Source of the DNA: a bacterium
GTDB taxonomy: Bacteria; Myxococcota; UBA727; JAUIJE01
Direction: 5' to 3'
Length of the DNA stretch: 64,000 nucleotides
Assembly (NCBI GenBank): GCA_030431455.1
Contig: JAUIJE010000012.1
Coordinates: forward strand, 62,001-126,000
In this document: piece after piece, positions 6,893 to 60,840 of the stretch
Layout of the letters: each line of letters begins with the position of its first letter
Numbering within the stretch: the stretch's first letter is position 1
Position numbers and translations under genes: made by a program
Notes under the pieces: generated by a model
Told to the model about the DNA's origin: nothing
Seen by the model: only the letters and a program-made list of their open reading frames with translations
The model's database searches: none

Positions 6893-6895
6893 GCG

Positions 6896-7399: not shown

Positions 7400-7432
7400 C
7401 GATCTGAGCATAGCGCGCGGCCACACGTCTGG

Positions 7433-8641: not shown

Positions 8642-8788
8642 CGGGTGCTCGTGACCTCCTCCGGACAGTGTATCGGCTGCTGCGCCGCATCGTTCGGACC
8701 CGTGTCCCGCCCGCGCCGTGAGCAGATCTGACGCTTCGCGTCGCGCCGGGCGCCTCGCCATCGCCGGGGTGGCGTGCGACCATGTCGC

Positions 8789-38789: not shown

Positions 38790-39980
38790 ATGCGTGTGGT
38801 CACAGTCTGTTTGGGTTTGATGGTCGGGGCTCTTGTCTGGGTGGGGTGTCCCGGTGACGCGGACGGCCCCGGGGGCACAGATGCGGGTCCGGGTGACGGC
38901 GACGGGGACGGTGATGGCGATGGGGACGGAGATGGCGACGGGGACGGGGACGGAGATGGCGACGGGGACGGGGGAGCGGTCGACGCCGGTTCTTCGGGAG
39001 ATGGAGACGGCGATGGAGACGGCGACGGCGACGGCGATGGGGATGGAGATGGAGACGGCGACGGCGACGGGGATGGAGATGGCGATGGGGATGGAGATGG
39101 CGACGGCGATGGGGATGGAGACGGCGATGGGGATGGAGACGGGGACATGAGCTTGAACGTCGACTGGATCCACGGCTCGGCCAACTGCAACACCAACACC
39201 GACCCCCCGATCCAAGTCCACGAGGTCAACCCCACCACGTTCATCCTGCGCCAGAACGCCTGCCTCAACTTCGAGGCGCCGTTCATGTTCTTGCTCATCG
39301 GGGACCAAAGCGCCCTGCTGCTCGACACCGGCGCCACCAGCAACGCCAACCAGTTCCCCCTGCGCACCACCGTCGAGGGCCTGCTCACCACCTGGCTCAC
39401 CGGCCAGGGGCGCACCCGAGACAGCCTCGAGCTCATCGTGGGCCACACCCATTCACACGGCGATCATGTGCAAGGCGACGGCCAGTTCGCGGGCCAGCCC
39501 GACACCACGCTGCTCGGCACCTCCACCGCGGCGGTGGCCAACTTTTTCGGCATCAGCGACTGGCCCGACGAGGCCGTGACCTACGACCTCGGCGGCCGGG
39601 TGCTCGACGTGTTCGGCATTCCCGGGCACCAGGCGCAATCCATCGCGGTGTTCGATCGCAACACAACGCTGCTGTTCACCGGGGACACGTTTTACCCCGG
39701 AAACATCTTTGTGTCCGACTGGTCGGACCTGCAGGACAGCATCGCCCGCCTCACCGCCTTCGCGATGCTCAACCCCCCGGCGATGATCCTCGGCACCCAC
39801 ATCGAGATGACCAGCACCCCGGGCGTCGTCTATCCCTACCCCAATGTGTACCAGCCCGACGAGCACGTCCTCGAGCTCACCCTCGCGCACCTCATCGAAC
39901 TCAACAGCGTGCTCAGCGTCACCAACACCCCCCAATGTCTCTACTTCGACGACTTCCTGGTCAACCCCGGCGGCTGTTGA
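38790..39980 (+). CDS. Lipoprotein with metallo-beta-lactamase-fold domain
   Basis: The 396-residue protein has a lipoprotein signal ending GALVWVGC, then a linker of about 100 residues that is almost only Gly-Asp, and a C-terminal metallo-beta-lactamase fold. The zinc motif HTHSHGDH is at residues 219-226; a later [10 protein letters not shown] supplies another His, and [11 protein letters not shown] the bridging Asp. This fold covers hydrolases such as lactonases, glyoxalases and beta-lactamases; the substrate cannot be told. The linker may hold the enzyme away from the outer membrane. It is divergent from the giant lipoprotein gene (117 bases between). Confidence 0.85.
38892..39147 (+). 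repeat. Long Gly-Asp codon repeat in lipoprotein linker
   Basis: Two blocks of GGxGAy hexamers (38892-38968 and 39000-39147) flank a short spacer encoding AVDAGSSG. Codon third positions alternate irregularly, as in the repeat at 15803-15897. The spacing is six bases throughout, which rules out a CRISPR array. Confidence 0.9.
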
Positions 39981-39993
39981 GCGGGTTTTGCGC

Positions 39994-40392
39994 ATGAACG
40001 ACCCCGCTGTCCGTCGAGAACACACCGCGTCGCCCTTCGAGGCCCGCTACGGCTTTTGTCGCGGGCTGCGGGTCGGCGATCGCATCGAGATCGCCGGCAC
40101 CGCCCCCATTCCCCCCGACGGCAGCGCCCCCCCGGAAGGGGCTGAGGCCCAGGCCGCGCTGTGTTTCGCCATCGCCGCGCGGGCTGCAGATGCATTGTGC
40201 GACGGGTGGGTCCCCCTGCGCACCCGCATGTACATTGTGGACGAGGGTGACCAAGACGCGGTGGGGCGGGCCCACGCCGCCGCGTTCGGGGCGCACCCCC
40301 CGGTGGCGACCATGGTCGTGGTCAAGGCGCTGCTCGACCCCCGCTGGCGGGTCGAGATCGAACTCGAGGCCCTCGCGACCTCGTCAGGGTGA
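39994..40392 (+). CDS. RidA/YjgF-family protein
   Basis: The 132-residue protein matches the RidA fold: an N-terminal strand pair ending GDRIEIAGTAPI, helix EGAEAQAALCFAIAARA, a strand RTRMYIVD, and the C-terminal PPVATMVVVKALLDPRWRVE with the conserved Arg and an Ile-Glu-Leu-Glu end. RidA enzymes hydrolyse reactive enamine/imine intermediates; this subgroup often has other roles. The ATG at 39994 has no clear ribosome site. It converges on the next gene with a nine-base overlap of the coding ends. Confidence 0.82.
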   Translation: MNDPAVRREHTASPFEARYGFCRGLRVGDRIEIAGTAPIPPDGSAPPEGAEAQAALCFAIAARAADALCDGWVPLRTRMYIVDEGDQDAVGRAHAAAFGAHPPVATMVVVKALLDPRWRVEIELEALATSSG

Positions 40393-40986
40393 CGCGGCCT
40401 CGGCCCGGCTTTGGGGCAGGGCGGCGAACGCGCGCAGGCACTCGGTGCGGCGGGCGGTGTTCTCGTCGGGGGAGAGGTTCATCAGGCCCAGGGTGATCAG
40501 GTCCGGGCCGCTCACGCTCGCGTAGAGATCGACGAACGCCCCGGGGCTGTCGGCGAGCGCCTTGGGGGTCTGGACCCGGATGCCTTGGAACGCGGCCCCC
40601 CCGACGGTGATCGCGGGGGCCTTTTGGGGGTCACCGTCGAAGGTCGCGGCCCCTGCGTTGAGGTAGTCTTCGGCCTGCTTGTCGGTGCCGTGTCCGATGA
40701 GCACCGCGAGGTCGCAGGTCACGTCGGGGGCGGGGGTGACGTGCAGTGACACTTTGGGGGGCTCGTTCACGAACGCAGGCGACCAACTCTTGGGCACCGT
40801 GACCGTGCCCCCCGGGAACACAAACTCGCTGAGCACCACCGCATCGCCCGCCGCGGGCGCAGGCGCCACCGCGGGGTCGGCGTTCGCCGCCGCGGGGGGC
40901 GCGTCGCTCGTCGACGCGGGTCGCGCTGCCTTGTCCTCACACCCGCAGAGCACCGCCACCGCCGCGAACAACCAAATCCGATTCAT
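40384..40986 (-). CDS. Small lipoprotein, possible last gene of the iron-regulated operon
   Basis: The 200-residue protein has a short signal and lipobox (FAAVAVLCGC), an Ala/Pro-rich linker, and a compact domain starting SEFVFPGGTVTVPKSWSPAF. That domain resembles the single-domain DcrB/PsbP-like lipoproteins seen in many envelope operons, but I would not assign a family. A strong GGGAGG site precedes the ATG at 40986. It lies 20 bases downstream of the HTTM gene on the same strand, so it may be the fifth gene of the Fur-box operon. Confidence 0.7.
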   Translation of the reverse strand: MNRIWLFAAVAVLCGCEDKAARPASTSDAPPAAANADPAVAPAPAAGDAVVLSEFVFPGGTVTVPKSWSPAFVNEPPKVSLHVTPAPDVTCDLAVLIGHGTDKQAEDYLNAGAATFDGDPQKAPAITVGGAAFQGIRVQTPKALADSPGAFVDLYASVSGPDLITLGLMNLSPDENTARRTECLRAFAALPQSRAEAASP

Positions 40987-41006
40987 GTCGCCTCCCTCGA
41001 CGGACG

Positions 41007-42293
41007 CTACCGCACCGGGGGCGCGCCTGTCACAGGCGGGGGCCGGGGCCACACCGCGTCCATCGGCTCGTCGAGGGCACACAGGTTGACGTCCTTCATC
41101 AGCGGGACCGCGCGGCGGCCGTTGTGCGCGACCCGGGCATCCACGCGCACGTCGGCGGCACCGGACGCGGCCTCGGGAACCCGGCGGCACAGGCGGTGCG
41201 CGTACTCCAGCAACATGTCGGGCTGAAAGCCCATCTGGCGCGCCTGCAGCGCGGTGAGGTCGCGCACCGGGAGGGGGTGGCGCACGCCCTGCTCGTCGAC
41301 CCGCGCGAACGTCACGTCGGCGCGTTTTTCGTTGAGCATCACCCGCCAGGAAAAGCGGTAACCCTGTTCGTGCCAGTTCACGTCGCCCTCGTGCAGCACA
41401 AAGCGCCAGGGCAACAAAAGCTGCACCAGGATGTGCACCCCGAACACAACCGTGCGCCAGCGCCCCCCGGGGGGCGCGGCCGCCGCGAGGGGGGGCTCAC
41501 CGACGGGCAACAGCAGCGTCGCGGCCAGGACCATGACAAAGCTGAACAGCCCAATGGGGAACAGCAGGCCCACGGTGGCGTGAAAGCCGACGCACACCAC
41601 CAACGCCGCGCGCGCGGTGGGCCGCCACAAAAGCCAGATCCAAATCGTGAGGTCAAACAGCGCGCCGCCCCAGCTCATCAACACCGGGACCATGTCCGCG
41701 GCCAGCAGCGGCCCCACCCCCGGCGTGAACCGAAACCCCCACAGCCACGAGGCCAACGGCTCGCCGTCGACGAGCCAGTCGCGGTTGAGCTTCCACAACC
41801 CGGCGTAGAAGTACACCAGGGCCACCTGGGCCCGGAACGCCCAGAGCTCCCACCGGGGCACGGTCGCGCCCCCGCGGTCGCGCCACCGCACGGTGGCCAC
41901 GCTCGACAACGCGAGCATCGCCACCAGGATCGAGACCAGGTAGTAGTGGTTCAGGTACAGGGTCTTGTCGACGAGCTCGGCATAGGTGAACAGCACCCCG
42001 TAGCCGGCCAGGCACCAGCGCCCGAAGCGCCCATGAGCAAAGCCGAGGGCCAGCCCCGCCATCGCCAGGTAACAGAGGCTCATCCACGGCGGGGGCAAAG
42101 GGCGCACCCAGCCAAAGCCCTGATAATGAAACTGCACAGTCGGGGCGAGCAGCAGGTCGTCGACCCAGCCGTAAGCCCAAAACCGGACCGCGGCGATGGC
42201 GAGCAGGACCCCGAGGCCGACGCGAAACAGGACCAGGCGCCGGGCGGGCACGGGCTCGTCGAGCCGCGCCCACGACCCGCGGTCAATCGGCAT
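41007..42293 (-). CDS. HTTM-domain (vitamin K-dependent gamma-carboxylase-like) membrane protein
   Basis: The 428-residue protein has about eight membrane segments, starting VLFRVGLGVLLAIAAVRF. It carries the HTTM pattern: FHYQGFGWVRPLP in the first loop, ALVYFYAGLWKLNRDWL in the middle, and the late GYRFSWRVMLNEK. This fold is related to the integral-membrane vitamin K gamma-glutamyl carboxylase. In bacteria HTTM genes are frequently linked to imelysin-type lipoprotein genes, as here. Its bacterial reaction is not established. The first ten bases overlap the end of the preceding imelysin-like gene, showing tight operon packing. Confidence 0.88.
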   Translation of the reverse strand: MPIDRGSWARLDEPVPARRLVLFRVGLGVLLAIAAVRFWAYGWVDDLLLAPTVQFHYQGFGWVRPLPPPWMSLCYLAMAGLALGFAHGRFGRWCLAGYGVLFTYAELVDKTLYLNHYYLVSILVAMLALSSVATVRWRDRGGATVPRWELWAFRAQVALVYFYAGLWKLNRDWLVDGEPLASWLWGFRFTPGVGPLLAADMVPVLMSWGGALFDLTIWIWLLWRPTARAALVVCVGFHATVGLLFPIGLFSFVMVLAATLLLPVGEPPLAAAAPPGGRWRTVVFGVHILVQLLLPWRFVLHEGDVNWHEQGYRFSWRVMLNEKRADVTFARVDEQGVRHPLPVRDLTALQARQMGFQPDMLLEYAHRLCRRVPEAASGAADVRVDARVAHNGRRAVPLMKDVNLCALDEPMDAVWPRPPPVTGAPPVR

Positions 42294-43389
42294 CGGAGTC
42301 GGTGAAGCTCACGGTCAGGCCGAGCCCGCCCATGATGTCGGCGCGGACCAGGGTGGCCAGGCCCCGCAGGGCCTCCACGTAGAGGTTCACGTCGTCGAGG
42401 TCGTTCTCCAACGCTTGCTCGAGGGTGCCGTCGAGGTTGGCCCGGGTGGCATCGATGTCCGCGAACACCGATTCGATATTTGCGGAAGCATCGCTGTTGC
42501 GGGTCTCCCACAGGGCGTCCACCCCGGTCTCCATCCGGTCGCTGGTCAGCAGCACCTGGCGGGCGGCGTCCACGGTGGCGTCCACCGATGCCAAGGACAG
42601 CCCCGCGGCCCGGGCCTCGAGTTTGTCCAGGGCGAGGGCCCCGCTGGGGGCTTCGCCGATGGGGGCCTCGACGTTCTCTTCGCGCACGAGCTGGGCCGCG
42701 TCGAGGATGTTCTGCAGCAGGTGGGTCAACACCGCGATGTCGTCGTCCAGGTCCATGATTTGACCGGGGTCGGTCAGGCCGGTGACGTAGGCCGGGTCGT
42801 CGTCGAAGAAGCCCTTGCGCCACTGGCCGGCCAAGAACGCCACGTCGGCGGCGGCGGCTTGGGCGTAGGCGCACCCGGCATCGTAGGCCCCCTGGTCCAT
42901 GGTCGGGTCCCGCAGGTGTTCGTAGAGCACCCAGCCGAGACCGGGGTAGCCGCGCTGGTCGGCCCCGAGGTCCTGCATGCCCGCCGCGTCGGGGGCGGCG
43001 TCGATGGCGAGCTCGATGCGCGCCGGGTCCACCGGCCAAGAGTCGGCCTTGACCGCGATCCGGTAGGGCTGCTCGTCGAAGGGGCCGAACCGCGCGATGG
43101 TCAGGCGCTTGTACGCGGTGAAGGCCCGGCGGTACGCGGCGTCGATGTCAGCCTGGGCCTCCAGCTCATAGCCGGCCGGGCTCAACCCCTCGCAGGCGGT
43201 GACCGCGGTCGCCAATGCGTCTGCTTCGGTGCGCCAGGTCGCGGTGGCCGGCTCCAGGTAGTCGTCGACGTAGGCGTGGACAAAATCCGTGAGCAGCTGG
43301 GCTTCGCCGTTGCCGTCTCCGGTCCCGGCCGAACACCCCACGAGTCCGACGAGCCCCGCCCAGGCCCAGGTCTTGCCCCACGCGCTCAC
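42283..43389 (-). CDS. Imelysin-like lipoprotein (second copy)
   Basis: The 368-residue protein has a lipobox (LVGLVGC), and the mature part is almost entirely helical, as in imelysin/IrpA proteins of peptidase family M75. In place of the GxHxxE signature it has RGYPGLGWVLYEHL. The His is missing, as is common in the second imelysin gene that follows a di-haem oxidoreductase gene. Imelysins are periplasmic or surface proteins of iron uptake rather than proven peptidases. The GTG start overlaps the upstream stop by four bases (GTGA), so translation is coupled. Confidence 0.85.
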   Translation of the reverse strand: MSAWGKTWAWAGLVGLVGCSAGTGDGNGEAQLLTDFVHAYVDDYLEPATATWRTEADALATAVTACEGLSPAGYELEAQADIDAAYRRAFTAYKRLTIARFGPFDEQPYRIAVKADSWPVDPARIELAIDAAPDAAGMQDLGADQRGYPGLGWVLYEHLRDPTMDQGAYDAGCAYAQAAAADVAFLAGQWRKGFFDDDPAYVTGLTDPGQIMDLDDDIAVLTHLLQNILDAAQLVREENVEAPIGEAPSGALALDKLEARAAGLSLASVDATVDAARQVLLTSDRMETGVDALWETRNSDASANIESVFADIDATRANLDGTLEQALENDLDDVNLYVEALRGLATLVRADIMGGLGLTVSFTDSDAD

Positions 43390-44828
43390 AGCGACTCCAC
43401 AAACGACACCAGCCGGGCGCGTTGTTCGGCCGTGAGCTGGGCAAAGTTGTCCCGGGCGGCGCGGGCTTCGCCCCCATGCCACAGGATGGCTTCTTCGACC
43501 CCGTCGGCCCGGCCGTCGTGAAGCAAGCGCATGTGGCCGTTGACCCCGGGGAGCGCGGACAGGCCCCACAGCGGCGGGGTGCGCCACTCGTTGCCGGACG
43601 CGGAGAAGGTGGGGCGGTGGTCGCTCAGGTCATCGCCCATGTCGTGCAGCAGCAGGTCGGTGTAGGGCCAAATCCGCTGGTCCTGGGCCGCGCTGATGTC
43701 GTGGGCTCCGGTCGTCACCTGCGGAACGTGACACCCGGTGCACCCCACTTCGTAAAAGTGACGCCGCCCCTCGAGGATCTCCTCGCTGCTCCAGGTCTCC
43801 CGGGCGGGGGGCGCGCACAAGCTGGCGTAGGTCGCGACCCGGTTGAACACGTGATCGCTCACGTCTGGCTCGTCCTCTGACTGGGCCTCGAGGCAGGGAC
43901 CTTGGGCCGACGTGCAATCGTCCCCCGGCCGCACGTAGGAGGTCAGCCCCATGTCTCCCGCAAATGCCCCTGCGTTCTGATCGCGCACCGACGGCTGCTC
44001 GGCCTTCCAGCCAAACCGCCCGACCTGCATCTCACCGTGCTCCGCGCTCCACACCCGGGCCACCCGGCCGGAGATGCCGTCGCCGTCCTCGTCGTCGGGG
44101 TCCGCCCACTGTTCGAGCTGGGCCTCGGGGATGGCCTCCAACAGGGCCAAGCCGATCACCGCGGGGGCGACCCGGGGGGACATCGCCACCGGCTCGTCGA
44201 CGTCACCGTAGCCGGTGAAGGCCAATTCGTAGCGAGGCGCCTTGAGCACCACCCGTTGGCCGTCGGCGTAGGCAAAGGGTTGGTTTTCGTATTCGATGGT
44301 CACGGTGCCCTCCGCGGGCACGTCGCCCGCGGCGAGGTTTTGCAGTTGGCCGCCGTACACCGCGTGGGCCTCGGGCGCGCCGTGGGTGGTGGTGCGGCCC
44401 GTCGACAGGCGCACCAAAAACCCCGTCACCTCCTCGTCGCCCACCGGGGGCCGGCCCCGTCCGTCACGCAGGTGGCAGGCGGCGCAGGACCGCGCGTTGA
44501 ACAGCGGGCCGAGCCCGTCCCGGGCGGAGGTCGACGAGACGCCCTGCACCCACGCGGAGGTGAAAAACGAGTTGCCCGAATAGAACGCGTCTTCGTCGTC
44601 GCGGTCGGCGTTTTCGTAGGGTTGCGAGTAGGCGAGGTTGCCGAGGGTGAAGGTGTTGGTCGCGTCCCCGCCCGGCAGCCACTCGGACTCGTCGAGCTCC
44701 GGCACCCCGGGCAGGCAGCCCGCGCCCAGCCCCGCGGCCAACGCCCAAGACAAAAGGAGCCGCCCCGCCGGGACGAAGCCCGGCGGAGCGTGGAGTGTGG
44801 AAGCAGAAGCACGAACCAATGCAGTCAC
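43386..44828 (-). CDS. Di-haem oxidoreductase (DUF1111/DHOR) lipoprotein
   Basis: The 480-residue protein starts at a GTG behind GGGGGAGG (an ATG 14 codons upstream is less likely), followed by a signal with lipobox ALAAGLGAGC. Two c-type haem motifs are visible: CAACH at residues 115-119 and CTGCH at 363-367. The surrounding DGLGPLFNARSC and DLLLHDMGDDLSDHRP are typical of the DHOR family, distant relatives of bacterial cytochrome c peroxidases. DHOR genes commonly sit between two imelysin genes in iron-responsive operons, the arrangement seen here; a role in redox handling of iron or its ligands is inferred. Confidence 0.93.
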   Translation of the reverse strand: MTALVRASASTLHAPPGFVPAGRLLLSWALAAGLGAGCLPGVPELDESEWLPGGDATNTFTLGNLAYSQPYENADRDDEDAFYSGNSFFTSAWVQGVSSTSARDGLGPLFNARSCAACHLRDGRGRPPVGDEEVTGFLVRLSTGRTTTHGAPEAHAVYGGQLQNLAAGDVPAEGTVTIEYENQPFAYADGQRVVLKAPRYELAFTGYGDVDEPVAMSPRVAPAVIGLALLEAIPEAQLEQWADPDDEDGDGISGRVARVWSAEHGEMQVGRFGWKAEQPSVRDQNAGAFAGDMGLTSYVRPGDDCTSAQGPCLEAQSEDEPDVSDHVFNRVATYASLCAPPARETWSSEEILEGRRHFYEVGCTGCHVPQVTTGAHDISAAQDQRIWPYTDLLLHDMGDDLSDHRPTFSASGNEWRTPPLWGLSALPGVNGHMRLLHDGRADGVEEAILWHGGEARAARDNFAQLTAEQRARLVSFVESL

Positions 44829-44859
44829 ATGTCCTCCCCCGCCGCGGGACGCGGCGCGG

Positions 44860-46044
44860 TCAGAATTCACGCGGCGGAACGTCGAGCCCCGCCGCCCGGA
44901 ACGCGTCCTCGAGGAGGTCGCGCACGATGAAGAGTTGATCGATCAGGGTTTGCACCGCGGCGTTGCCGGCGTCGTTGCCCGAGGCGATGGCTTGATCAAA
45001 GGGCACGGGGAGCGCGTTGGCGTCGGCCAGCGCTTGATCGATGGCTTGGTTGATGTCGGTGGCCAAGCCCTCGTCGAGGGCGGTGATCACGTCCTTGACG
45101 CCGTCACCGGACACCCCGTCGTAGCTCCCCCGCCACACGTTCTGGATGCCCTGGATGTCTTGGATCATGTCCCGGTGGGTGTTGTCCGAAAAGCACGAGT
45201 GCTCTTCTTCTTGATCGTGGTTGTCGAGGGCGGGCTTCAGGCGCTCGCTGCCGGTCTCGAACCCGGCGAGCACGATCATGCCGATCATGATGCGCTCCAG
45301 CTGCACCTCGGGGGCGGCGGCGACAAAGTCGACCGCGTAGGTGTCCCCGGTGGGTTGCCAGGCGTCGACGAGGTGTTGGAGATGGCCCACGAGCATGGCG
45401 CTGACCGTCTCCAGGTACAACCGGCGTCGATCCGCGTTGGCGCCGGTGCCCACGATGTAGTCGTCGACCGGGCGATCGCCGGGGCCGTCGCTGGCGGTGT
45501 CTTGGCCCCAGAGCAAGAACTCGATCGCGTGGTAGCCGGTGGCGATGTTCGCTTCGCCCCCTTGCTCGTTGAGGCTCTCGAGGGTGGCGGCGTCGATGGT
45601 GTCGGTGCCCGCGATGATGCTGCCCGCGCCGTCGGGGGTGTCGAGGGTATAGTCGATGTAGTTCTCGTCGAGGGGCCAGGCGTTGATGAAGCCCTCGGGC
45701 CCGGTCTCTTCGTCGTCGATGGGGCCTTCGTAGAAACGAAACACCTCGGTCTGCAGGTAGGGCTCGCGGGCGGCGCGCCAGGCGTCCTTGGCGGTGGCGA
45801 GATTCGCCGCCGTGGGGTCGGCGAGGAACGTGGTGATCGCGCCGTCGAGGTCTTGGGCCGCGGCCAATGTGTCTTCGTAGTTGGCGAGCACGATGTCGGC
45901 GTAGGTCTGGGCGACATCGCCGACGTTGTCAGGCAACTCGACATCGGGACCGGCGTCGGCGCCGCCGTCATCGGTGGACGGGCAGGCCAGCGCGAGGCCG
46001 AGGGAACAGAGGGCAAACGACGTGCGAACAACGCGGAACAGCAT
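44860..46044 (-). CDS. Imelysin (IrpA-type) lipoprotein, first gene of iron-regulated operon
   Basis: The 394-residue helical lipoprotein has a lipobox (LGLALAC) and an Asp/Gly-rich linker. The imelysin signature GxHxxE is present as GYHAIEFLLWG, with His 172 and Glu 175. WPLDENYIDYTL and a second half with FSDNTHRDMIQDIQGI are also typical of IrpA-like proteins. Iron-regulated members are needed for growth at low iron in cyanobacteria, but the ligand is unknown. The ATG at 46044 has a GGAG site. A Fur box at 46065-46085 lies 20 bases upstream, and three or four genes follow in tight order. Confidence 0.93.
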   Translation of the reverse strand: MLFRVVRTSFALCSLGLALACPSTDDGGADAGPDVELPDNVGDVAQTYADIVLANYEDTLAAAQDLDGAITTFLADPTAANLATAKDAWRAAREPYLQTEVFRFYEGPIDDEETGPEGFINAWPLDENYIDYTLDTPDGAGSIIAGTDTIDAATLESLNEQGGEANIATGYHAIEFLLWGQDTASDGPGDRPVDDYIVGTGANADRRRLYLETVSAMLVGHLQHLVDAWQPTGDTYAVDFVAAAPEVQLERIMIGMIVLAGFETGSERLKPALDNHDQEEEHSCFSDNTHRDMIQDIQGIQNVWRGSYDGVSGDGVKDVITALDEGLATDINQAIDQALADANALPVPFDQAIASGNDAGNAAVQTLIDQLFIVRDLLEDAFRAAGLDVPPREF

Positions 46045-46064
46045 GAACTGATCTCCGATGGTTT

Positions 46065-46085
46065 TGATTATTATTCTCATTTTCA
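46065..46085 (-). promoter_or_regulatory. Fur box in front of the imelysin-DHOR operon
   Basis: The plus-strand core GATTATTATTCTCATTTTC (46066-46084) is the reverse complement of a 19-base Fur site; on the minus strand it matches GATAATGATAATCATTATC at 15 of 19 positions. It overlaps the probable promoter of the operon, as expected for iron-dependent repression. It stands out as AT-rich in GC-rich surroundings. Confidence 0.82.
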
Positions 46086-46144
46086 ATTAGGGCCAGTGAT
46101 TTTGCCCGTCAAAGAAAATGGGACAGAAACATGAGATGGCCAGC

Positions 46145-46759
46145 CTAAGTACTTTGAATGGTTGGGCTTTCAAGAAGGTCGGCGGCGAGCTCGAGCCGGG
46201 TCGCGCGGCGGAGGGGCTGCACCGCGGTCAACCGGGGCCCGAGCAACAAAAGCGCGGCGGGGGCCCCCGCGCACAGCGCCCGCCGGGCCGCGGGGTCGAG
46301 GGAGAACCGGAGGTATTTCACCGGGTCGGCGGGGTCGACGTCGGGATGGACGTGAGCGAGGTGGTGGCGCCGGCCGACCCGCAGGGCCACCCCCACGCGC
46401 CCGTCGTGCAGGCCGGCGACGAGGCGGTCGCCGGTGGCGCGACAATCTGATTGCACAAACAGCGTGGCGGTCAGCTCGCCCGGGTTCGCCGACAACGGAG
46501 CATAGGCGGCGAACTCGTGCGCGATCCGTGCCGCGGTGGGGCGTCCGCCGGTCTCGATGTGCAGCACCTCTTGGATTTGGAACAGCACCGTCTGGGCATT
46601 TTCAAACAAAACAGTGCAATGCGGTCCCACCGGGACCCGGCGGCGTTGTTTGCGCGCGGCCATGGCCGCGGTCCAGGTGGGGCGGATCGCGCCGTACAGG
46701 CTGGGGTCGACCAGGAGCGACGGGTGCAGGGGGCGGGGCGAAGGGAGCGAACGGCCCAT
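46145..46759 (-). CDS. DUF3501 family protein
   Basis: The 204-residue cytoplasmic protein has the DUF3501 hallmarks: the basic RKQRRRVPVGPHCTVLFENA, then TVLFQIQEVLHIE, and a C-terminal half with VKYLRFSLD. The family is usually linked to ferredoxin/rubrerythrin-type or iron-sulfur genes and has no proven reaction. The ATG at 46759 overlaps the upstream stop by one base (TGATG) and a GGAG lies inside that gene. It is the last gene of the second Fur-box operon. Upstream in-frame residues are Arg/Pro-rich noise from an overlapping gene. Confidence 0.82.
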   Translation of the reverse strand: MGRSLPSPRPLHPSLLVDPSLYGAIRPTWTAAMAARKQRRRVPVGPHCTVLFENAQTVLFQIQEVLHIETGGRPTAARIAHEFAAYAPLSANPGELTATLFVQSDCRATGDRLVAGLHDGRVGVALRVGRRHHLAHVHPDVDPADPVKYLRFSLDPAARRALCAGAPAALLLLGPRLTAVQPLRRATRLELAADLLESPTIQST

Positions 46760-47187
46760 CAGACGATCTCCGGGGTGAGGGGCAAGCACCGCGGCGATGA
46801 CCGGCGGGGGGCGCGCGGCGCGGAAAGCAGGCGGGCCCATGAGGCGAGGGCGGGCAAGCCGACGTCGTGGGCGAGGCGCACGAGCTCGTCGGCGAGGGGC
46901 CAGGTGGGGACCCGCTCCCGCCGGCCGAGGATGGGGAAAAGCTCCCACGCGCCGCCGGTGAGCGGGGACGGGGTCAGCACCGACAGCCCCACCGCAGCTT
47001 GCCACAGTTGCGCAGGCTCCACGCCCGCGCCGCACAGCCGGCGCCCCAGGGGGCAGCGCGGGTCGGCCCGACGCAGCTCCCAGCCAGCGCCCAGGGGCTG
47101 CACGGGGCGACGCCACCGGGGATCGTGCAACGCGATGTGGCTGGTCTGTCCCGGCGCGAAGGGGGAGGCGGTCACGGGTGTCCACAT
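46759..47187 (-). CDS. Unrecognised 142-residue protein of the second iron-regulated operon
   Basis: The protein has no signal peptide or membrane segment and is rich in Trp, Pro and Arg. It begins MWTPVTASPFAPGQ, has two Cys residues (DPRCPLGRRLCGAG), and ends with a helical region (WPLADELVRLAHDVGLPALA) and an Arg-rich tail. I do not recognise a family. Both of its ends are translationally coupled: its ATG overlaps the stop of the Cys-rich small gene and its stop overlaps the DUF3501 ATG, each as TGATG. That coupling supports it being real and expressed with its neighbours under Fur control. Confidence 0.7.
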   Translation of the reverse strand: MWTPVTASPFAPGQTSHIALHDPRWRRPVQPLGAGWELRRADPRCPLGRRLCGAGVEPAQLWQAAVGLSVLTPSPLTGGAWELFPILGRRERVPTWPLADELVRLAHDVGLPALASWARLLSAPRAPRRSSPRCLPLTPEIV

Positions 47188-47411
47188 CACGCTTCGCCCA
47201 CCGGCCCGAACAGGGGGCGGAGGTCGGCGGTCTGCACCAAGTTCTTCACCGCAAAGTCGATGGCCTCGGCGAAGCCACAGAAGGACGTCTGGTCGAAGTG
47301 CAAGGTGGTCCGCCCCACGGTGACGCAGATGTCGCCGCAACTGCAGCGCTGCACCCGGGCGTGGGCGGTGGCGGACAAGAAACGTTTTTGATGGCAGGGG
47401 CCGGCGGTCAT
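47187..47411 (-). CDS. Cys-rich 74-residue protein, first gene of the second iron-regulated operon
   Basis: The small cytoplasmic protein has Cys residues at 6, 23, 25, 29 and 45 within MTAGPCHQKRF, QRCSCGDICVTVG and TSFCGFAEAIDF. The layout (a CxCG turn, a short strand pair TVGRTTLHFD, then a helix) recalls small Cys-containing proteins such as DUF6686, but the match is loose. Five Cys and the position behind a strong Fur box (47446-47466) suggest metal binding; this is inference. The ATG at 47411 has an AAGGAG site. Its stop overlaps the next ATG. Confidence 0.78.
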   Translation of the reverse strand: MTAGPCHQKRFLSATAHARVQRCSCGDICVTVGRTTLHFDQTSFCGFAEAIDFAVKNLVQTADLRPLFGPVGEA

Positions 47412-47713
47412 CGATCGCTCCTTGAGAAGGTGGTCGGGATCGTTTTGAAAACGATAATCATAATCAACATCATTTTGCAAACCAGAAACGAGCGCCTGGA
47501 TCCGCCGTGGCCGGTGGACGTGGTCGCTGTCCCCCCGGGGCCAAGACACAATGCTGCTGCAGAATGACTGTGCGGGCAGACCCCGGGGCGCGGCGGGGGG
47601 GCGCCGTCTCGTGCGGTCGCCGTGACCGCGGCCACGGGCGGGCGTGGATCGACGCCGGACACCCGGCGGGTCGGACCCGAAACTTCACGCCCCCACACAC
47701 CGCAGGAGCGTGC
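47412..47713. other. Divergent intergenic region with Fur box
   Basis: The 302-base region separates the second iron-regulated operon from the lipase-like gene. It holds the Fur box at 47446-47466. The half next to the lipase-like gene has an AGGAG ribosome site but no promoter I can identify. I see no further gene. Confidence 0.6.
47446..47466 (-). promoter_or_regulatory. Fur box in front of the DUF3501 operon
   Basis: The plus-strand core GAAAACGATAATCATAATC (47447-47465) matches GATAATGATAATCATTATC at 16 of 19 positions, and the flanking T and A extend the symmetry. It lies 35 bases upstream of the ATG at 47411. This is the stronger of the two Fur boxes. Confidence 0.87.
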
Positions 47714-55680: not shown

Positions 55681-58260
55681 ATGACTGAGCCCCTCGACGA
55701 TGCGTTGATCGGTCGTGACGACGACCTCCGGGGGCTCGGCCATGCGGTCGACCGACACCGGCTGGTCACGCTGCACGGCGCCGGGGGGGTGGGCAAGACC
55801 ACCCTCGCCCGGGCGCTGGGCCACGGCCGCCATGGCGCGGTGTTCGTCTCCTTGGTCGGGGCCCGCACCCTCGACGACCTGGTGTCGCCCTGGGCCGCCG
55901 CGCTCGGGCTGCGCATCGGCGAGCTCGGCCCCACCACCGACGCGGCGGTCACCCGGCTCATCGATGCGCTCGCGGGCCGGGGCGATGTGTTGCTGGTGCT
56001 CGACAACGTCGAACAGGTCAAAGGCGCCTTGTCCCCCCTCCTCGCCCGGCTCGTCGCCGGCGCGCCCCGGGCCCGGGTGCTGGCCACGTCGCGTGAGCCC
56101 CTCGACGTGCCGGACGAACACACGTTCGAGCTCCTGCCGCTCTCGGTCGAGGCCGCGTCCCGGTTGTTCGTCGCGCGGGCCCAGCGGGTCAACCCCCACT
56201 GGGAGCCCAGCGATGCTGAACCATTGGGTCGCGTGCTCGACATGCTCGGGCACAACCCCCTCGCCATCGAGCTCGCCGCGGCCCGCACCGAGGTCTTGAG
56301 CCTCGCCCAGCTCGTCGAGCGCCTGCACAAGCCGCTGACCCTGCTGCGCTCGGCCGACTCCACCCTCGAGGCCCGGCACCGGGTGTTGGCCGACACCATC
56401 CAATGGTCCTGGGACCTGCTCGAGCCCGACGAGCAGGTCGCGTTGGCCTGGTTGGCACAGTTCGAAAATGGCTTCACCGCCGCCGAGGCCGCGGCGCTGT
56501 TGCCGCCCTCGGTCGAGGCGGAGCGCTTGTTGCGCGGGCTGGTGCGCAAGTCTCTGGTGGTGGGCACCACCGCCGCCCACCCCCGGCATCGGTTGTTGCC
56601 GGTGGTGCGTTCGTTTGTGCGGGAGCGCCGGGCGTTGCCCGCGCCGGAGCACGCCGCGGACCGGTTCGCCACCATGTTTCTGCGCTGGGTGGGCGAGCTT
56701 GACCCCCGACGGGCCGACGATGTGGACTGGGCGCTGGCCCACGTCGACGACGTGGTGGTCTCGTTGCGGCACCAAGCGAGTCTGAGGCCCGCGGAGGTCA
56801 CGGTCCGGTTGAGCCAGTTCGATCCCCTGTTCGGGCCGATGCTGACCACCGAACGGTTCATGGGGCTGTTCGACGCGGTGCTCGCGGCCACCGACGACCC
56901 CGCGCTGATCGCGACCCTGCGGGTGGCCCGGGGCGAGGCCTGGTTGATCCGCCAACGGCACGCCGAGGCCGGCGAGGATGCGGCCGCGGCGTGGGCCGTT
57001 CTCGACGGGTGCAGCGGCAGCGAAGCAGAAACATTGCGGGCCCGGGCCTTGAGCCTGTCCGGGTCCTACCTGAAATCCATGGGCCGGTTTGCCGAGGCCC
57101 GCGAAGCGTTTGCCAAGGTCGAGCCGGTGGTGGCGCACTCCCCCGGCGACCGGGCCCGGCTGATGGGACGCCTGTTCGCGGCCGACATCCTCGAGGGCCG
57201 CCTCGACGCGGCCGACGCCCGGGCCGAGGACGTGCTGGTGGCGGCCCGGGAAGCGGGCAGCCTGCGCGACGAGGTGTTCGTGCTGATCAACCGCGGCTGG
57301 ATGCGGTTCGAGCGCGGCGAGGCCGCGCAAGCCCGGGCCGATTTTCTCGCTGCCGAGCCGTTGGCCGCGCACTTCGCGAGCGATGACATCCAGATCTTGG
57401 TGGCGTTCAACCTCGGCTGGATCGAGCTCGAGCACGACGAGCTGTCGGCGGCGTTCGACCGGGCCACCGCGGTGCTCGAGCGCGCCGAGCGCAACGGTTC
57501 GCGGCTCTTGATGGGCATGGGCGCCCTCCTGCTCGGGTTGGTGTTGGCCGAACAGGGCGACGACGACGGGGCCGAGGGCTGGCTGGCCCAAGCCGACCAA
57601 GTGATGACCGGCGCCGACGACGTGCGGCGGGCGCGGTTTTGTCCCCAGGGCTACCGCGCGGTGTGTTTGCTGCGCCTGGGGCGGTGGGAGGCGGCGCAGG
57701 CCTTGGTGCAAGAGCTGGCCGCGGACACCGCCCCGTCGGTCAAGTTCGCGCCCGCCCGGGCGTTCCTCTACCCTGCCGCGCAAATGTTACTGGACAGGCG
57801 GGGCGAGGCCGCGCCCCTCGCTGACGTCCCCGGGCCGGTGGCCGAGGCCCTGACGCTCCCGGCCCAAGGACCGACCCGGCTCGCCCTCCGTTGGCTGCGC
57901 CGGGCGTTGCGCCACGTCGGACCGGACCCCGAGGCGGAGCCGGGGCCGCAGCTGCGGGTGGGGCCGGACCAAGACCGGTTCACCATCGGCGGGGAGGAGG
58001 TTGATCTCCGCCGGCGCGGTCCCGCCCGGCGGGTGTTCCAGGCGCTGTTGGCCCAACACCGGGAGCGGCCGGACCAAGCGCTGCCCTGGTCGGCGTTGTT
58101 CGCGGCGGCGTGGCCGGGCCAGACCGCGGGGCCCCAGACCGCGCGCAACCGGGTGTACACCGCGGTGCGGGAGCTGCGCCGGTTCGGGCTCGGCACCTGG
58201 CTGGTCAACCGCGAGGATGGGTACCTGCTGTCGCCGTCGCTCGACTTGGTACAGGACTAG
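55681..58260 (+). CDS. STAND ATPase regulator with TPR-like repeats and C-terminal winged helix (copy 1)
   Basis: The 859-residue protein has an NB-ARC-type ATPase at the N-terminus with Walker A GAGGVGKTT (33-41), Walker B VLLVLDNVEQ and a GHNPLAIELAAARTE sensor segment. A winged-helix-like linker with TIQWSWDLLEPDEQ follows. The middle 350 residues are helical repeats of the TPR kind (RGEAWLIRQRHAEAGED; GEAAQARADFLAAEP). The last 100 residues look like an OmpR/SARP-type DNA-binding domain (ARNRVYTAVRELRRFG and GYLLS). STAND proteins switch on ligand binding by ATP-driven oligomerisation. The C-terminal DNA-binding domain reverses the order usual in SARP/AfsR proteins. A close paralogue follows seven bases later. 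Confidence 0.85.
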   Translation: MTEPLDDALIGRDDDLRGLGHAVDRHRLVTLHGAGGVGKTTLARALGHGRHGAVFVSLVGARTLDDLVSPWAAALGLRIGELGPTTDAAVTRLIDALAGRGDVLLVLDNVEQVKGALSPLLARLVAGAPRARVLATSREPLDVPDEHTFELLPLSVEAASRLFVARAQRVNPHWEPSDAEPLGRVLDMLGHNPLAIELAAARTEVLSLAQLVERLHKPLTLLRSADSTLEARHRVLADTIQWSWDLLEPDEQVALAWLAQFENGFTAAEAAALLPPSVEAERLLRGLVRKSLVVGTTAAHPRHRLLPVVRSFVRERRALPAPEHAADRFATMFLRWVGELDPRRADDVDWALAHVDDVVVSLRHQASLRPAEVTVRLSQFDPLFGPMLTTERFMGLFDAVLAATDDPALIATLRVARGEAWLIRQRHAEAGEDAAAAWAVLDGCSGSEAETLRARALSLSGSYLKSMGRFAEAREAFAKVEPVVAHSPGDRARLMGRLFAADILEGRLDAADARAEDVLVAAREAGSLRDEVFVLINRGWMRFERGEAAQARADFLAAEPLAAHFASDDIQILVAFNLGWIELEHDELSAAFDRATAVLERAERNGSRLLMGMGALLLGLVLAEQGDDDGAEGWLAQADQVMTGADDVRRARFCPQGYRAVCLLRLGRWEAAQALVQELAADTAPSVKFAPARAFLYPAAQMLLDRRGEAAPLADVPGPVAEALTLPAQGPTRLALRWLRRALRHVGPDPEAEPGPQLRVGPDQDRFTIGGEEVDLRRRGPARRVFQALLAQHRERPDQALPWSALFAAAWPGQTAGPQTARNRVYTAVRELRRFGLGTWLVNREDGYLLSPSLDLVQD

Positions 58261-58266
58261 CCGCGC

Positions 58267-60840
58267 ATGACCGATGATCAAGCACACACATTGGTCGGCC
58301 GCGACCACGACCTCGACCAGTTGGTGCAGGCCAGCGCTGCGCACCGGCTGGTCACCGTGCACGGCGCCGGCGGCATCGGCAAGACGAGCCTGTGCCGGGC
58401 GTTCTGCGCGCGGCACCCCGCGGCGTTGTTTGTGCCCCTCGTCGGCGCGCACAGCACCAGCGAGGTGCTGGCCCAGGCCGCCACCGCGCTGGGCTTGCGC
58501 ATCGGCCAACTCGGGCCCACCGACGAGGCAGCCTCGGCCCGGCTCGCGGCCGCTATTGGGGGGCGGGGGGACGTGGTGCTGGTGCTCGACAACGCCGAGC
58601 ACGTGAAAGCGCCATTGGCCGCGCTCTTGCCGCGGTTGCTCGAGGCCGCGCCCCGGGTGCGGGTGGTGGTGACCTCCCGCGACGAGCTCGGCCTGCTCGG
58701 CGAGCACACCCATGAGCTCACCGCGCTGTCGGCGGCCGACGCCGCGGCGTTGTTCGTGGCGCGGGCCCGGCAGGCCAATCCCCAGGTCGACCTCGACGAC
58801 GCGGAGCAGCTCGCGCAAGTGCTCACCGTGCTCGCGGGGGTGCCGCTGGCCATCGAGCTGGCCGCGGCCCGCACCGAGGTGCTCAGCTTGTCACAATTGG
58901 CCGAGCGCCTGAAGAGGCCTCTGGCCCTGCTGCGGTCCCAGGACGCCACCTTCGAGCCCCGGCACCGGGCCCTGATCGACACCATCCAATGGTCCTGGGA
59001 CCTGTTGTCGGCCGACGACCAGCGGGGGCTGGCCTGGCTCGCCCGGCTGCGCGGCGGGTTCACCTCCGACGAGGTCGCGGGGTTGTTGCCCGCCGAGCTC
59101 GACCCCCGGGCGCGGCTGCAGAGCCTGGTGCAAAAGTCATTGGTCGCCCCCGCCGGCCGAGACGGGCGGCACAGCCTGCTCCCGGTGATGCGATCGTTTT
59201 TGGCGACACGGTCCGCGGACTTGATCGACGCGGCGCGCGCGGACGCAGAGTTCACGCGCACCTTCCTGGATTGGTTCGACGACCTGGACCCCCGGGACGA
59301 CGCGGACGTCGCCTGGGCCGCGGCCCACGTCGACGATGTCACCGAGGCGATGGCCCACCGGGCGGCGCAGGCCCCGGCGGAGATGGTCGACCGCTTGCCA
59401 CGGTTTGACCTGCTGTTCGGTCCGTATCTGCCGGTGGACCGGTTCATTGGGCTCTTTGACCGGGCCCTGGCCGCGGACGTGGAGCCCGGGCTTGAGGCCG
59501 CGCTCCGGGTGTCCCGGGGCGAAGCGTGGTTGGCCCGGCAGCGTCACGCCGAGGCCGGGGAGGACGCGGACGCCGCCCTGGCTTTGTTGGCGTCACGCCC
59601 CGGGGCCGATGCAGAGAGATGGCGCGGGCGGGCGCACAGTCTTCGTGGCTCCGGGCTGACCTGGGTCGGCCGGTTCGACGACGCCCGGGCCGCGTTCGCC
59701 GCGGCCGCGCCGCTGCTCGCGAGGTCGCCCTTCGACCGGGCCCGGCTGCTGTGGCGGCAGTTCTCGGCCGCGATCAACGAGGGCGATCTCGAGGCGGCCG
59801 GGGCCCAGGCCGACGAGGTGCGCGCCGCGGCCCAGGCGTTCGCCAATCCCCGCGACGAGGTGTTCGTGCTCATCAACCTGGCTTGGCTCCATTTTGAGCG
59901 CGGCGACACCGAGCAGGCCCGGGCCGAACTGTGGCAAGCCGAGCCGGGGGCGGCCCACTTCACGAGCGAAGACGTCCAGATCCTCATCCGGTTCAACCTC
60001 GGCTTCATCGAGCTCGAGCACGAGGAACTCGTCGCCGCGTTCACCCAGGCCTCCGAGACCTTGGAGCGCGCCGAACGCTCAGGCTCGCGGTTGATGACCG
60101 GCATGGGCGCCCTGTTGCTCGGGTTGGTGCTCGCCGAACAAGGCGACGACGACGCGGCCGAGCTCTGGCTGGCCCAGGCCGACCGCACCATGTCCGCGAC
60201 CGACCACGCGCGGCGCGCCCGGCTGTGCCCCAGCGGATACCGGGCCTGCGCGTTGGCCCGCCTGGGTCGACGAGAGGCGGCCCTCGCGGTGGTGCAGGAG
60301 CTGGCCGCGCGCGCCCCGCCGCCCACCCAGTTCGCGCCCGCCCAGGCCTATCTCTTGCCGGCGGCGCGGTGGCTGCTCGAGGCCCCCGCGCCCGGGGACG
60401 CGGTGCCCGACGAGGTGGCCGCGGCTCTGGCGTTGCCCGCGGTGGGGGCGACGCGGTTGGCCCGCCGTTGGCTGGAGCGGGCCCTGCGCCCCCCGGCGCC
60501 GCCCCCCGTCGACGAGGAAGCGCCGGTGTTGCGCGTGGCCGCGGACCAGCGTCGCTTTGCCCTCGGGGCCCACGAGGTCGACTTGAGCCGGCGCGGTCCG
60601 GCGCGCCGGACGTTCCAGGCCTTGCTCGCCCAGCACCGCGCCGAGCCCGACGCGCCGCTGTCCAGTGACATGCTGTTCGCCGCGGCTTGGCCCGGCCAGA
60701 CCGTGGGCCCCCAGTCGGCGCGCAACCGGGTGTACGCGGCGGTCCGCGAGCTGCGCCGGTTGGGGCTCGGCCCCTGGCTGCTGACCGCAGAGGGCGGTTA
60801 TCTGTTGTCCTCGGCGCTCACGGTTGCACAAGAACCATAA
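58267..60840 (+). CDS. STAND ATPase regulator with TPR-like repeats and C-terminal winged helix (copy 2)
   Basis: The 857-residue protein is a collinear paralogue of the preceding one, with Walker A GAGGIGKTS at the same positions (33-41), Walker B VVLVLDNAEH, the shared RTEVLSLSQLAERL and DTIQWSWDLL blocks, TPR-like repeats and a C-terminal DNA-binding region (ARNRVYAAVRELRRLG). By eye more than half the residues are identical, fewest in the repeat region, where ligand binding would be expected. The gap to copy 1 is six bases, so both come from one tandem duplication and are probably cotranscribed. They may form mixed oligomers or sense different ligands. Confidence 0.85.
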   Translation: MTDDQAHTLVGRDHDLDQLVQASAAHRLVTVHGAGGIGKTSLCRAFCARHPAALFVPLVGAHSTSEVLAQAATALGLRIGQLGPTDEAASARLAAAIGGRGDVVLVLDNAEHVKAPLAALLPRLLEAAPRVRVVVTSRDELGLLGEHTHELTALSAADAAALFVARARQANPQVDLDDAEQLAQVLTVLAGVPLAIELAAARTEVLSLSQLAERLKRPLALLRSQDATFEPRHRALIDTIQWSWDLLSADDQRGLAWLARLRGGFTSDEVAGLLPAELDPRARLQSLVQKSLVAPAGRDGRHSLLPVMRSFLATRSADLIDAARADAEFTRTFLDWFDDLDPRDDADVAWAAAHVDDVTEAMAHRAAQAPAEMVDRLPRFDLLFGPYLPVDRFIGLFDRALAADVEPGLEAALRVSRGEAWLARQRHAEAGEDADAALALLASRPGADAERWRGRAHSLRGSGLTWVGRFDDARAAFAAAAPLLARSPFDRARLLWRQFSAAINEGDLEAAGAQADEVRAAAQAFANPRDEVFVLINLAWLHFERGDTEQARAELWQAEPGAAHFTSEDVQILIRFNLGFIELEHEELVAAFTQASETLERAERSGSRLMTGMGALLLGLVLAEQGDDDAAELWLAQADRTMSATDHARRARLCPSGYRACALARLGRREAALAVVQELAARAPPPTQFAPAQAYLLPAARWLLEAPAPGDAVPDEVAAALALPAVGATRLARRWLERALRPPAPPPVDEEAPVLRVAADQRRFALGAHEVDLSRRGPARRTFQALLAQHRAEPDAPLSSDMLFAAAWPGQTVGPQSARNRVYAAVRELRRLGLGPWLLTAEGGYLLSSALTVAQEP

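What the first reader, a model, noticed from the sequence alone, without database searches (positions are those of the whole stretch)
40384..47466. Two adjacent Fur-box operons forming one probable iron-controlled system
Eight tightly packed minus-strand genes are split in two operons, and each begins directly behind a good Fur site (15/19 and 16/19 matches by eye). One carries imelysin, di-haem oxidoreductase, imelysin-like, HTTM and a small lipoprotein gene; the other a Cys-rich 74-residue protein, an unrecognised 142-residue protein and DUF3501. Imelysin-DHOR-imelysin sets are known; joining them to HTTM and a second coregulated DUF3501 operon suggests an iron-acquisition or iron-redox pathway running from the outer surface to the cytoplasm. 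No TonB receptor or siderophore gene is within the block.
Basis: partly seen in the sequence, partly recalled or inferred. Interest (0 to 1): 0.85.

Follow-up and report, generated by a model that had tools for sequence, protein, structure and literature searches.

The report
Iron-starvation locus with two Fur operons
Eight bacterial genes lie behind two well-supported iron-switch sites; five form a known kind of iron operon, and the other three pair an unnamed small protein, whose relatives usually precede heme-degrading enzymes, with a DUF3501 protein found away from its usual partners.

Summary
Two Fur boxes (16/19, overlapping; 15/19) head two tightly packed minus-strand operons; chance is very unlikely. 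The genome's only other sites with at most 3 mismatches precede feoB and HmuY-type genes.

Operon 1 (imelysin, di-haem oxidoreductase, second imelysin, VKGC-type HTTM) is a known kind, as in Pseudomonas PA4370-4373, Leptospira lruB and Riemerella.

Operon 2 is the new part. Its 74-residue protein belongs to an unnamed ββββα family matched in 76 of 195 genomes of the phylum. Of 41 loci examined, 36 carry a Fur-like site just upstream, 31 have heme oxygenase next, 3 have imelysin/DHOR. In G002, of the same order, this gene heads the imelysin operon itself. So the halves belong together, through p74, not DUF3501.

The DUF3501 is a divergent second copy without rubrerythrin or its Fe-S partner. 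None of 120 other DUF3501 neighbourhoods (118 distinct) carried imelysin, DHOR, HTTM or p74. No heme oxygenase was found in this genome; p142-DUF3501 occupies its usual place. Fur binding, iron response and biochemistry are untested.

The parts
47447..47471 (-). Fur box of operon 2: two overlapping 19-mers, each 16/19, 35 bp before the p74 start
   Evidence: 0 of 5000 local shuffles reach 15/19
47187..47411 (-). p74: 74-aa Cys-rich member of an unnamed small family (CxCG, predicted ββββα fold)
   Evidence: profile built without it finds it at E 1.6e-11, next ORF 1.6; AF2 pLDDT 86; no credible Pfam/NCBIfam match
46759..47187 (-). p142: 142-aa protein without detectable relatives, overlapping both neighbours by TGATG
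46145..46759 (-). DUF3501 protein, divergent second copy of the genome, not next to rubrerythrin or RFO
   Evidence: Pfam PF12007 1.2e-29; model matches 3fjv Z 22.5, rmsd 1.9 over 182
46066..46084 (-). Fur box of operon 1 (15/19), 21 bp before the imelysin start
   Evidence: 2 of 5000 local shuffles reach 15/19
44860..46044 (-). Imelysin, ICMP/LruB type (GYHAIE = GxHxxE; lipobox-like motif)
   Evidence: PF09375 3.9e-75; LruB model 4e-44, 151 bits, below its cut-off of 850
43386..44870 (-). Di-haem oxidoreductase (DHOR/DUF1111) with two CxxCH
   Evidence: PF06537 2.6e-83
42283..43389 (-). Second imelysin, PA4372/IPPA type (GWVLYE = GxxxxE; lipobox-like motif)
   Evidence: PF09375 1.1e-19
41007..42293 (-). 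VKGC-like HTTM membrane protein with VKGC lumenal domain
   Evidence: PF05090 3.1e-59, PF22777 3.9e-31; aligned to a solved vitamin K-dependent gamma-carboxylase with the active-site Lys and His stretch in register
40384..40986 (-). Small lipoprotein of unknown family, 20 bp behind HTTM

Best explanation
This is one Fur-controlled iron-acquisition locus made of two adjacent operons that are derepressed together when iron is scarce.

The envelope arm (operon 1) is the known imelysin-DHOR-imelysin set plus a VKGC-type HTTM enzyme. It would bind and redox-process iron or an iron complex at the cell surface and in the periplasm. Domain content, lipobox-like motifs, Fur boxes and conserved order are shown; the chemistry is inferred.

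The cytosolic arm (operon 2) begins with p74, a member of an unnamed family that accompanies Fur boxes and usually heme oxygenase. I infer that this family serves the intracellular release or hand-over of newly acquired iron.

In this genome, where no PF01126 heme oxygenase was found, the place behind p74 is taken by p142 and a divergent DUF3501. DUF3501 is normally the partner of an aerobic rubrerythrin and its Fe-S oxidoreductase. I infer that it works here in redox handling of iron under starvation. The locus was probably formed by inserting p142-DUF3501 and a second Fur box between p74 and imelysin of an older single operon.
For: Fur boxes far above chance. The only other sites with 3 or fewer mismatches in the genome precede feoB and HmuY-type genes; the reversed control pattern gives 0. 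Two FUR-family proteins are encoded.

G002 of the same order has Fur box - p74 homolog - imelysin (61% identical) - DHOR - imelysin - HTTM.

p74 family: 36 of 41 loci have 13/19 or better within 200 bp upstream, against 12 of 820 shuffled upstreams and 33 of 820 random stretches; 31 of 41 have heme oxygenase next; 3 of 41 imelysin and DHOR (Pfam checks of five heme oxygenases). No heme oxygenase match in the genome.

DUF3501w keeps 18 of the 24 positions conserved at 85% or more in 119 others, 117 of them distinct, and folds as 3fjv. Published, passages read: iron response of the Leptospira set (PMC13066512), Fur-mutant response of the Riemerella VKGC and imelysin genes (PMC5609570), Fur-regulated PA4370-4373 (PMC3143127).
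Against: No expression or binding data. DUF3501 with imelysin is seen only here: 0 of 40 and 0 of 80, so that co-operation could be an accident of one genome. G094 has the same imelysin-DHOR-imelysin-HTTM order with no p74 match and no box of 14/19 or better in the 6 kb upstream of HTTM, so neither p74 nor a Fur box always goes with the set. p142 has no relatives found.

The 41 p74 loci are not independent; most come from one family of the phylum, 30 are the best-scoring ones and 11 were picked by me. 8 of the 41 have neither heme oxygenase nor imelysin/DHOR in reach, and 5 of 41 lack a Fur-like site of 13/19. The second Cys of CxCG is not kept in every member, so metal binding by p74 is not shown. 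The genome is 96.87% complete, so a missing heme oxygenase is not proof of absence, and non-PF01126 heme-degrading enzymes were not searched.
Confidence: 0.6

Rival explanations
1. Only the envelope operon and p74 matter for iron. p142-DUF3501 is a passenger that landed behind a Fur promoter and has no iron-specific role.
For: DUF3501 with imelysin, DHOR, HTTM or p74 in 0 of 40 and 0 of 80 other neighbourhoods; p142 is an orphan; DUF3501w sits on a long branch (terminal 1.22 against a median of 0.27) and loses 6 of 24 conserved positions.
Against: Start-stop overlaps tie p74, p142 and DUF3501 together; coding-type codon use and 18 of 24 conserved positions kept, so DUF3501w does not look decayed; a second DUF3501 with a Fur-like box and without RFO exists in G024 (L068).
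Confidence: 0.27
2. The locus is primarily a peroxide or redox defence tuned to iron status: DHOR and DUF3501 act on peroxide stress that accompanies iron shifts, and uptake is secondary.
For: DUF3501 normally belongs to the aerobic rubrerythrin system (PMC5114695, passages); the Leptospira imelysin-DHOR set is also raised by H2O2 (PMC7567364, passage); the G024 DUF3501 shares its intergenic stretch and Fur-like box with an AhpC-like gene (named by eye), and the Nitrospirales p74 homolog lies next to an AhpC/TSA gene.
Against: The motif is Fur-type and the genome's other best sites precede iron- or heme-uptake genes; rubrerythrin and RFO are absent from the window and sit in their own cluster, where the best Fur match in the 1.4 kb scanned is 10/19.
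Confidence: 0.12
3. The AT-rich boxes are bound by another FUR-family protein (PerR- or Zur-like) and the locus answers to peroxide or zinc.
For: Two FUR-family proteins are encoded, and FUR-family boxes resemble each other (recalled).
Against: Boxes fit the Fur consensus at 15-16 of 19 and the same motif stands before feoB and HmuY-type genes.
Confidence: 0.08

Closest known systems
Imelysin-DHOR-imelysin operons: PA4370-PA4373 of Pseudomonas aeruginosa, lruB operon of Leptospira
   Same: ICMP/LruB-type imelysin (GxHxxE), di-haem oxidoreductase with two CxxCH, PA4372-type imelysin (GxxxxE), same order, Fur box (PMC3143127, PMC13066512, PMC7567364, passages)
   Different: Adds VKGC-type HTTM and a lipoprotein, and a second Fur-boxed operon with p74, p142 and DUF3501
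Fur-regulated VKGC and imelysin genes of Riemerella anatipestifer (RAYM_09779-09794)
   Same: Vitamin-K-carboxylase-type gene beside an imelysin lipoprotein, listed among genes changed by Fur (PMC5609570, one table passage)
   Different: There with a TonB receptor and, in the listed rows, without DHOR; no TonB receptor is among the eight genes here
Fur-boxed imelysin-HTTM gene pairs of the same phylum
   Same: 16 of 20 fetched HTTM loci have an imelysin upstream; 14 of those 16 have a box of 14/19 or better further upstream
   Different: Most are imelysin-HTTM pairs without DHOR; of the 20 fetched, only G094 and G002 share the four-gene order
Aerobic-type rubrerythrin - RFO - DUF3501 module
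   Same: DUF3501 fold and most conserved positions
   Different: No rubrerythrin or RFO in the window; Fur box; the genome keeps a separate complete module on contig C10
DUF6686 (PF20391)
   Same: A Nitrospirales homolog of p74 matches it weakly (E 0.013)
   Different: Below the curated cut-off, and none of the 21 aligned p74-family members matches
EfeUOB ferrous-iron transporter
   Same: Imelysin domain with a peroxidase-type haem protein
   Different: No EfeU permease and no EfeO cupredoxin among the eight proteins

Membership tests
Imelysin-DHOR-imelysin iron operon (PA4370-4373 / LruB type) | Imelysin with GxHxxE, DHOR with two CxxCH, imelysin with GxxxxE, in that order | tested here: met
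Imelysin-DHOR-imelysin iron operon (PA4370-4373 / LruB type) | Fur box at the operon head | tested here: met
   15/19 at 46066-46084; 2 of 5000 local shuffles reach it
Imelysin-DHOR-imelysin iron operon (PA4370-4373 / LruB type) | Induction by iron limitation | not testable with these tools
   needs expression data
Vitamin K-dependent gamma-carboxylase superfamily | HTTM and VKGC lumenal domain | tested here: met
   PF05090 3.1e-59, PF22777 3.9e-31
Vitamin K-dependent gamma-carboxylase superfamily | Active-site Lys (K218, numbering recalled) and the His of NHxYL | tested here: met
   both aligned in the phmmer alignment to a gamma-carboxylase chain, 9wfn; the role of the residues is recalled
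Vitamin K-dependent gamma-carboxylase superfamily | Carboxylase or epoxidase activity | not testable with these tools
   biochemistry
Aerobic rubrerythrin - RFO - DUF3501 module | DUF3501 domain | tested here: met
   PF12007 1.2e-29; 3fjv Z 22.5
Aerobic rubrerythrin - RFO - DUF3501 module | Rubrerythrin and/or RFO beside DUF3501 | tested here: not met
   no RFO or RBR hit in the window at E 1e-2
p74 small-protein family (defined here) | Match to a profile built without the window protein | tested here: met
   E 1.6e-11 among 719 ORFs, next 1.6
p74 small-protein family (defined here) | Heme oxygenase directly downstream (31 of 41 loci; usual, not universal) | tested here: not met
   heme-oxygenase profile finds nothing in the window; none found in the genome
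DUF6686 | Match over the curated cut-off | tested here: not met
   0 of 21 members match at E up to 1; one outside homolog at E 0.013, 16 bits against a cut-off of 23.9
EfeUOB | EfeU permease and EfeO cupredoxin in the operon | tested here: not met
   Pfam scan of the eight proteins; rest of the genome not searched
PC4/PUR-like fold (p74) | Fold match clearly above background | tested here: inconclusive
   best Z 5.5, rmsd 2.3 over 58 residues, Borrelia Pur-alpha; no Foldseek E below 0.001

The most novel reading that the evidence does not exclude
p74 founds a new family of Fur-controlled cytosolic proteins that work with heme oxygenase and imelysin systems in the release or hand-over of acquired iron. 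In this organism, in which no heme oxygenase was found, p142 plus a DUF3501 recruited from the rubrerythrin system replaces heme oxygenase as the enzyme that p74 serves, so that DUF3501 would be an iron- or heme-handling redox protein.
Probability: 0.2. Interest if true: 0.78.

Novelty: new variant of a known kind. Interest (0 to 1): 0.52.

Why it matters
It adds a small, probably cytosolic protein (no lipobox found) to Fur-controlled imelysin loci, whose parts as described in the passages I read are envelope proteins, and shows that this protein is shared with heme-oxygenase operons in dozens of genomes. That gives a direct handle on two open questions: what the p74 family does, and what DUF3501, a conserved protein of unknown role (PMC5114695, passages), does apart from rubrerythrin. 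Both can be tested in Myxococcus xanthus and with purified proteins.

Tried and rejected
p142: no relative by Pfam, NCBIfam, PDB sequences (best a chance titin match, E 0.66) or phylum genomes. At E up to 1, 110 of 195 genomes (this one included) gave matches; outside this genome the best was 6.5e-4 over 28 residues, and I take these as composition-driven. The alternative reading of p142 as a 5' extension of DUF3501 was rejected on codon-position GC (0.64 at position 3 in that frame against 0.90 for p142).

p74 as DUF6686: considered, but only an outside homolog matches, weakly. p74 as a metal-binding zinc ribbon: not supported, as some members lack the second Cys. p74 fold search: only weak PUR/PC4/COMMD-like matches, compatible with a common arrangement.

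DUF3501w as a recent duplicate of the genome's own canonical copy: rejected, 32% identical and far apart in the tree. Its grouping with the G024 copy (support 0.87) may be long-branch attraction, since the two are only 26% identical.

Plasmid searches for p74 and for the Nitrospirales homolog found nothing. The p74 profile in 33 genomes reached through DUF3501 loci, at least one of which belongs to this phylum: 1 hit. DUF6686 in the paper library: 0 papers. 'HTTM domain' with 'imelysin': 0 papers. DUF3501: 5 papers, of which I read passages of two. Heme oxygenase with Myxococcus and Fur: 22 papers hold the words; I saw only the listing of 10 and none was on this arrangement. Sigma-70-type promoter and terminator scans gave nothing useful.

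Mended after checking: two contigs occur in both DUF3501 sets, so 120 neighbourhoods are 118 distinct and 119 proteins are 117 distinct; 20 of the 41 p74 stretches are short.


Full report
Observation. The block 40384-47466 contains eight minus-strand genes in two tight groups. Operon 2: p74, p142, DUF3501, joined by TGATG overlaps. After a gap of 100 bp, operon 1: imelysin, DHOR, second imelysin, HTTM, small lipoprotein, with overlaps of 4-11 bp and a final gap of 20 bp. Each group starts 21-35 bp behind a Fur box (16/19 twice, overlapping, and 15/19). No simulated window among 100 gave a site of 15/19 or better. Of 5000 shuffles of each intergenic stretch, 2 and 0 did. The consensus itself is recalled, not from a call.

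Is it Fur? The whole genome (7.7 Mb, 28 contigs, 96.87% complete) was scanned with up to 3 mismatches: five rows, three places, no control match. Besides the window these are the stretch before feoB (Pfam FeoB_N 1.5e-44), which also faces a divergent gene, and the stretch before two lipoprotein-like genes, of which the second is HmuY (6.2e-25) and the first matches HmuY only weakly (E 0.19). The 15/19 site of operon 1 falls outside that scan, so I do not know how many 15/19 sites the genome has. Two FUR-family genes are present. This makes Fur control likely. Binding was not tested.

Operon 1 is a known kind. Imelysin 1 has GxHxxE, imelysin 2 has GxxxxE, DHOR has two CxxCH. That is the ICMP/LruB - peroxidase - PA4372 set described as Fur-regulated in Pseudomonas (PMC3143127, passages). 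In Leptospira lruB, the di-haem oxidoreductase and the second imelysin are described as probably one operon and are raised under dipyridyl (PMC13066512, passages). In Riemerella a VKGC-type gene and an imelysin beside it are listed among Fur-affected genes (PMC5609570, one table passage). The HTTM protein aligns to a solved gamma-carboxylase over residues 6-261 and, weakly, 286-392, with the Lys of the active-site stretch and the His of NHxYL in register (their role is recalled).

HTTM and imelysin in the phylum. HTTM has matches in 73 of 195 genomes. I fetched 20 of the loci (18 from 17 other genomes, chosen mostly by best score, and two paralogs of this genome). 16 have an imelysin upstream. 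In 14 of these 16 a box of 14/19 or better lies upstream: in 11 within 1.4 kb of the HTTM start, in front of the imelysin; in G002 at the head of the longer operon, 4.3 kb away; in G004 and in a paralog of this genome 2.7-2.8 kb away. G094 and G017 have none. None of the other 4 loci has one. So HTTM with imelysin behind a Fur-like box is common here. Of the 20, only G094 and G002 have the four-gene order, and G094 shows no p74 match and no such box.

Operon 2, p74. Its own sequence found nothing in 96 relatives. The link came from G002 of the same order: behind a double Fur box (15/19) lies a small CxCG protein, then imelysin, DHOR, imelysin, HTTM. Searching with that protein gave 66 of 195 genomes at E 0.01, its own included and this one not. 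The 21-row profile gave 76 of 195 at E 0.001, with the genomes of its rows included. A profile built without the window protein finds p74 at E 1.6e-11 among 719 window ORFs, the next at 1.6. None of the 21 members has a credible Pfam or NCBIfam match.

Neighbourhoods of the p74 family. I examined 41 loci from 41 genomes, not all 76: the 30 best matches and 11 further ones picked from lower in its list. Heme oxygenase follows in 31 (one of them also with imelysin and DHOR upstream), imelysin and DHOR lie alongside in 2 more, and 8 have neither (the search profiles were built partly from these loci; Pfam confirms five heme oxygenases). 20 of the 41 stretches are under 3.3 kb, so more distant partners could be missed. 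A Fur-like site of 13/19 or better lies within 200 bp upstream in 36 of 41, against 12 of 820 shuffles and 33 of 820 random stretches from the same loci. The loci are related to each other, mostly from one family, so the counts are not independent.

Beyond. Among 33 genomes reached through DUF3501 loci (mostly of other groups by their titles; at least one belongs to this phylum), one has a match: a Nitrospirales MAG, where a 16/19 box precedes an AhpC/TSA gene followed by the p74 homolog and a cupredoxin gene.

p74 model. AlphaFold2 gives ββββα with mean pLDDT 86. Best structural matches are weak (Pur-alpha Z 5.5, rmsd 2.3, 58 residues; PC4 homolog Z 4.8, rmsd 1.8, 49 residues).

Operon 2, DUF3501. 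Pfam PF12007 1.2e-29; the model matches 3fjv (Z 22.5, rmsd 1.9, 182 residues). The genome has a second, canonical copy with RFO and rubrerythrin on C10. 53 of 195 phylum genomes match the window protein. Among 40 fetched phylum neighbourhoods, the canonical copy of this genome included, 35 have RFO beside DUF3501. Imelysin, DHOR, HTTM or p74 was in 0 of 40 and 0 of 80; 118 of the 120 are distinct.

A second case with a Fur-like box. Of 119 other DUF3501 loci (117 distinct; one of the 120 fell below the threshold), 1 has a box of 15/19 or better within 2.8 kb upstream: the copy in G024, which has no RFO nearby and is divergent from an AhpC-like gene. The window copy keeps 18 of 24 positions conserved at 85% or more, so it is probably functional, on a long branch.

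Operon 2, p142. Orphan, with coding-type codon use.

Synthesis. In G002 p74 heads the imelysin operon. In this genome p142, DUF3501 and a second Fur box stand between p74 and imelysin. In most of the examined p74 loci heme oxygenase stands behind p74. This genome has no PF01126 match. The simplest reading is an old Fur-p74-imelysin unit into which p142-DUF3501 was inserted, giving two adjacent Fur operons; loss in G002 is the alternative. Shown: gene content, Fur boxes, homology, neighbourhoods. Inferred: the insertion, co-derepression, and the cytosolic role of p74 and DUF3501. The taxon is not named by the tools. From genome sizes and neighbours I infer a Myxococcota-like phylum, and 'Myxococcus-type' in this report is that inference.

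Verdict. Operon 1 is ordinary. Interest comes from the unnamed Fur-linked family and from a DUF3501 outside its usual system.

Noticed in passing
L136 (G000:C21), 5177-9341: Second imelysin-HTTM unit in the same genome: DUF4856 protein, imelysin, HTTM, with a 14/19 Fur-like site at the head.
   Followed up: partly
L143 (G000:C12), 6254-8975: Fur box (16/19) before two lipoprotein-like genes; the second is HmuY (6.2e-25), the first matches HmuY only weakly.
   Followed up: partly
L068, 5822-7192: In G024 a DUF3501 without RFO nearby and an AhpC-like gene (named by eye) diverge from an intergenic stretch with a 15/19 Fur-like site; the only such case among 119 other DUF3501 loci.
   Followed up: partly
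L277, 792-2452: Nitrospirales MAG: 16/19 Fur-like box, AhpC/TSA gene, p74 homolog, cupredoxin gene; the p74 homolog weakly matches DUF6686.
   Followed up: partly
L177, 4662-6164: G038: 15/19 Fur-like site, p74 homolog, then a protein with a YceI domain.
   Followed up: no
L208, L238, L255, L266: Four DUF3501 genes of MAGs titled as Betaproteobacteria or Burkholderiales without a rubrerythrin or RFO match; three of them stand behind a similar gene of about 540-570 codons.
   Followed up: no
window 55681-60840: Two adjacent proteins of 859 and 857 residues with STAND-type NTPase (AAA/NB-ARC) and TPR matches.
   Followed up: no
window 38790-39980: Metallo-beta-lactamase-fold protein with a long Gly-Asp repeat near its N-terminus; similar Gly-Asp runs occur in genes elsewhere in the genome.
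   Followed up: no
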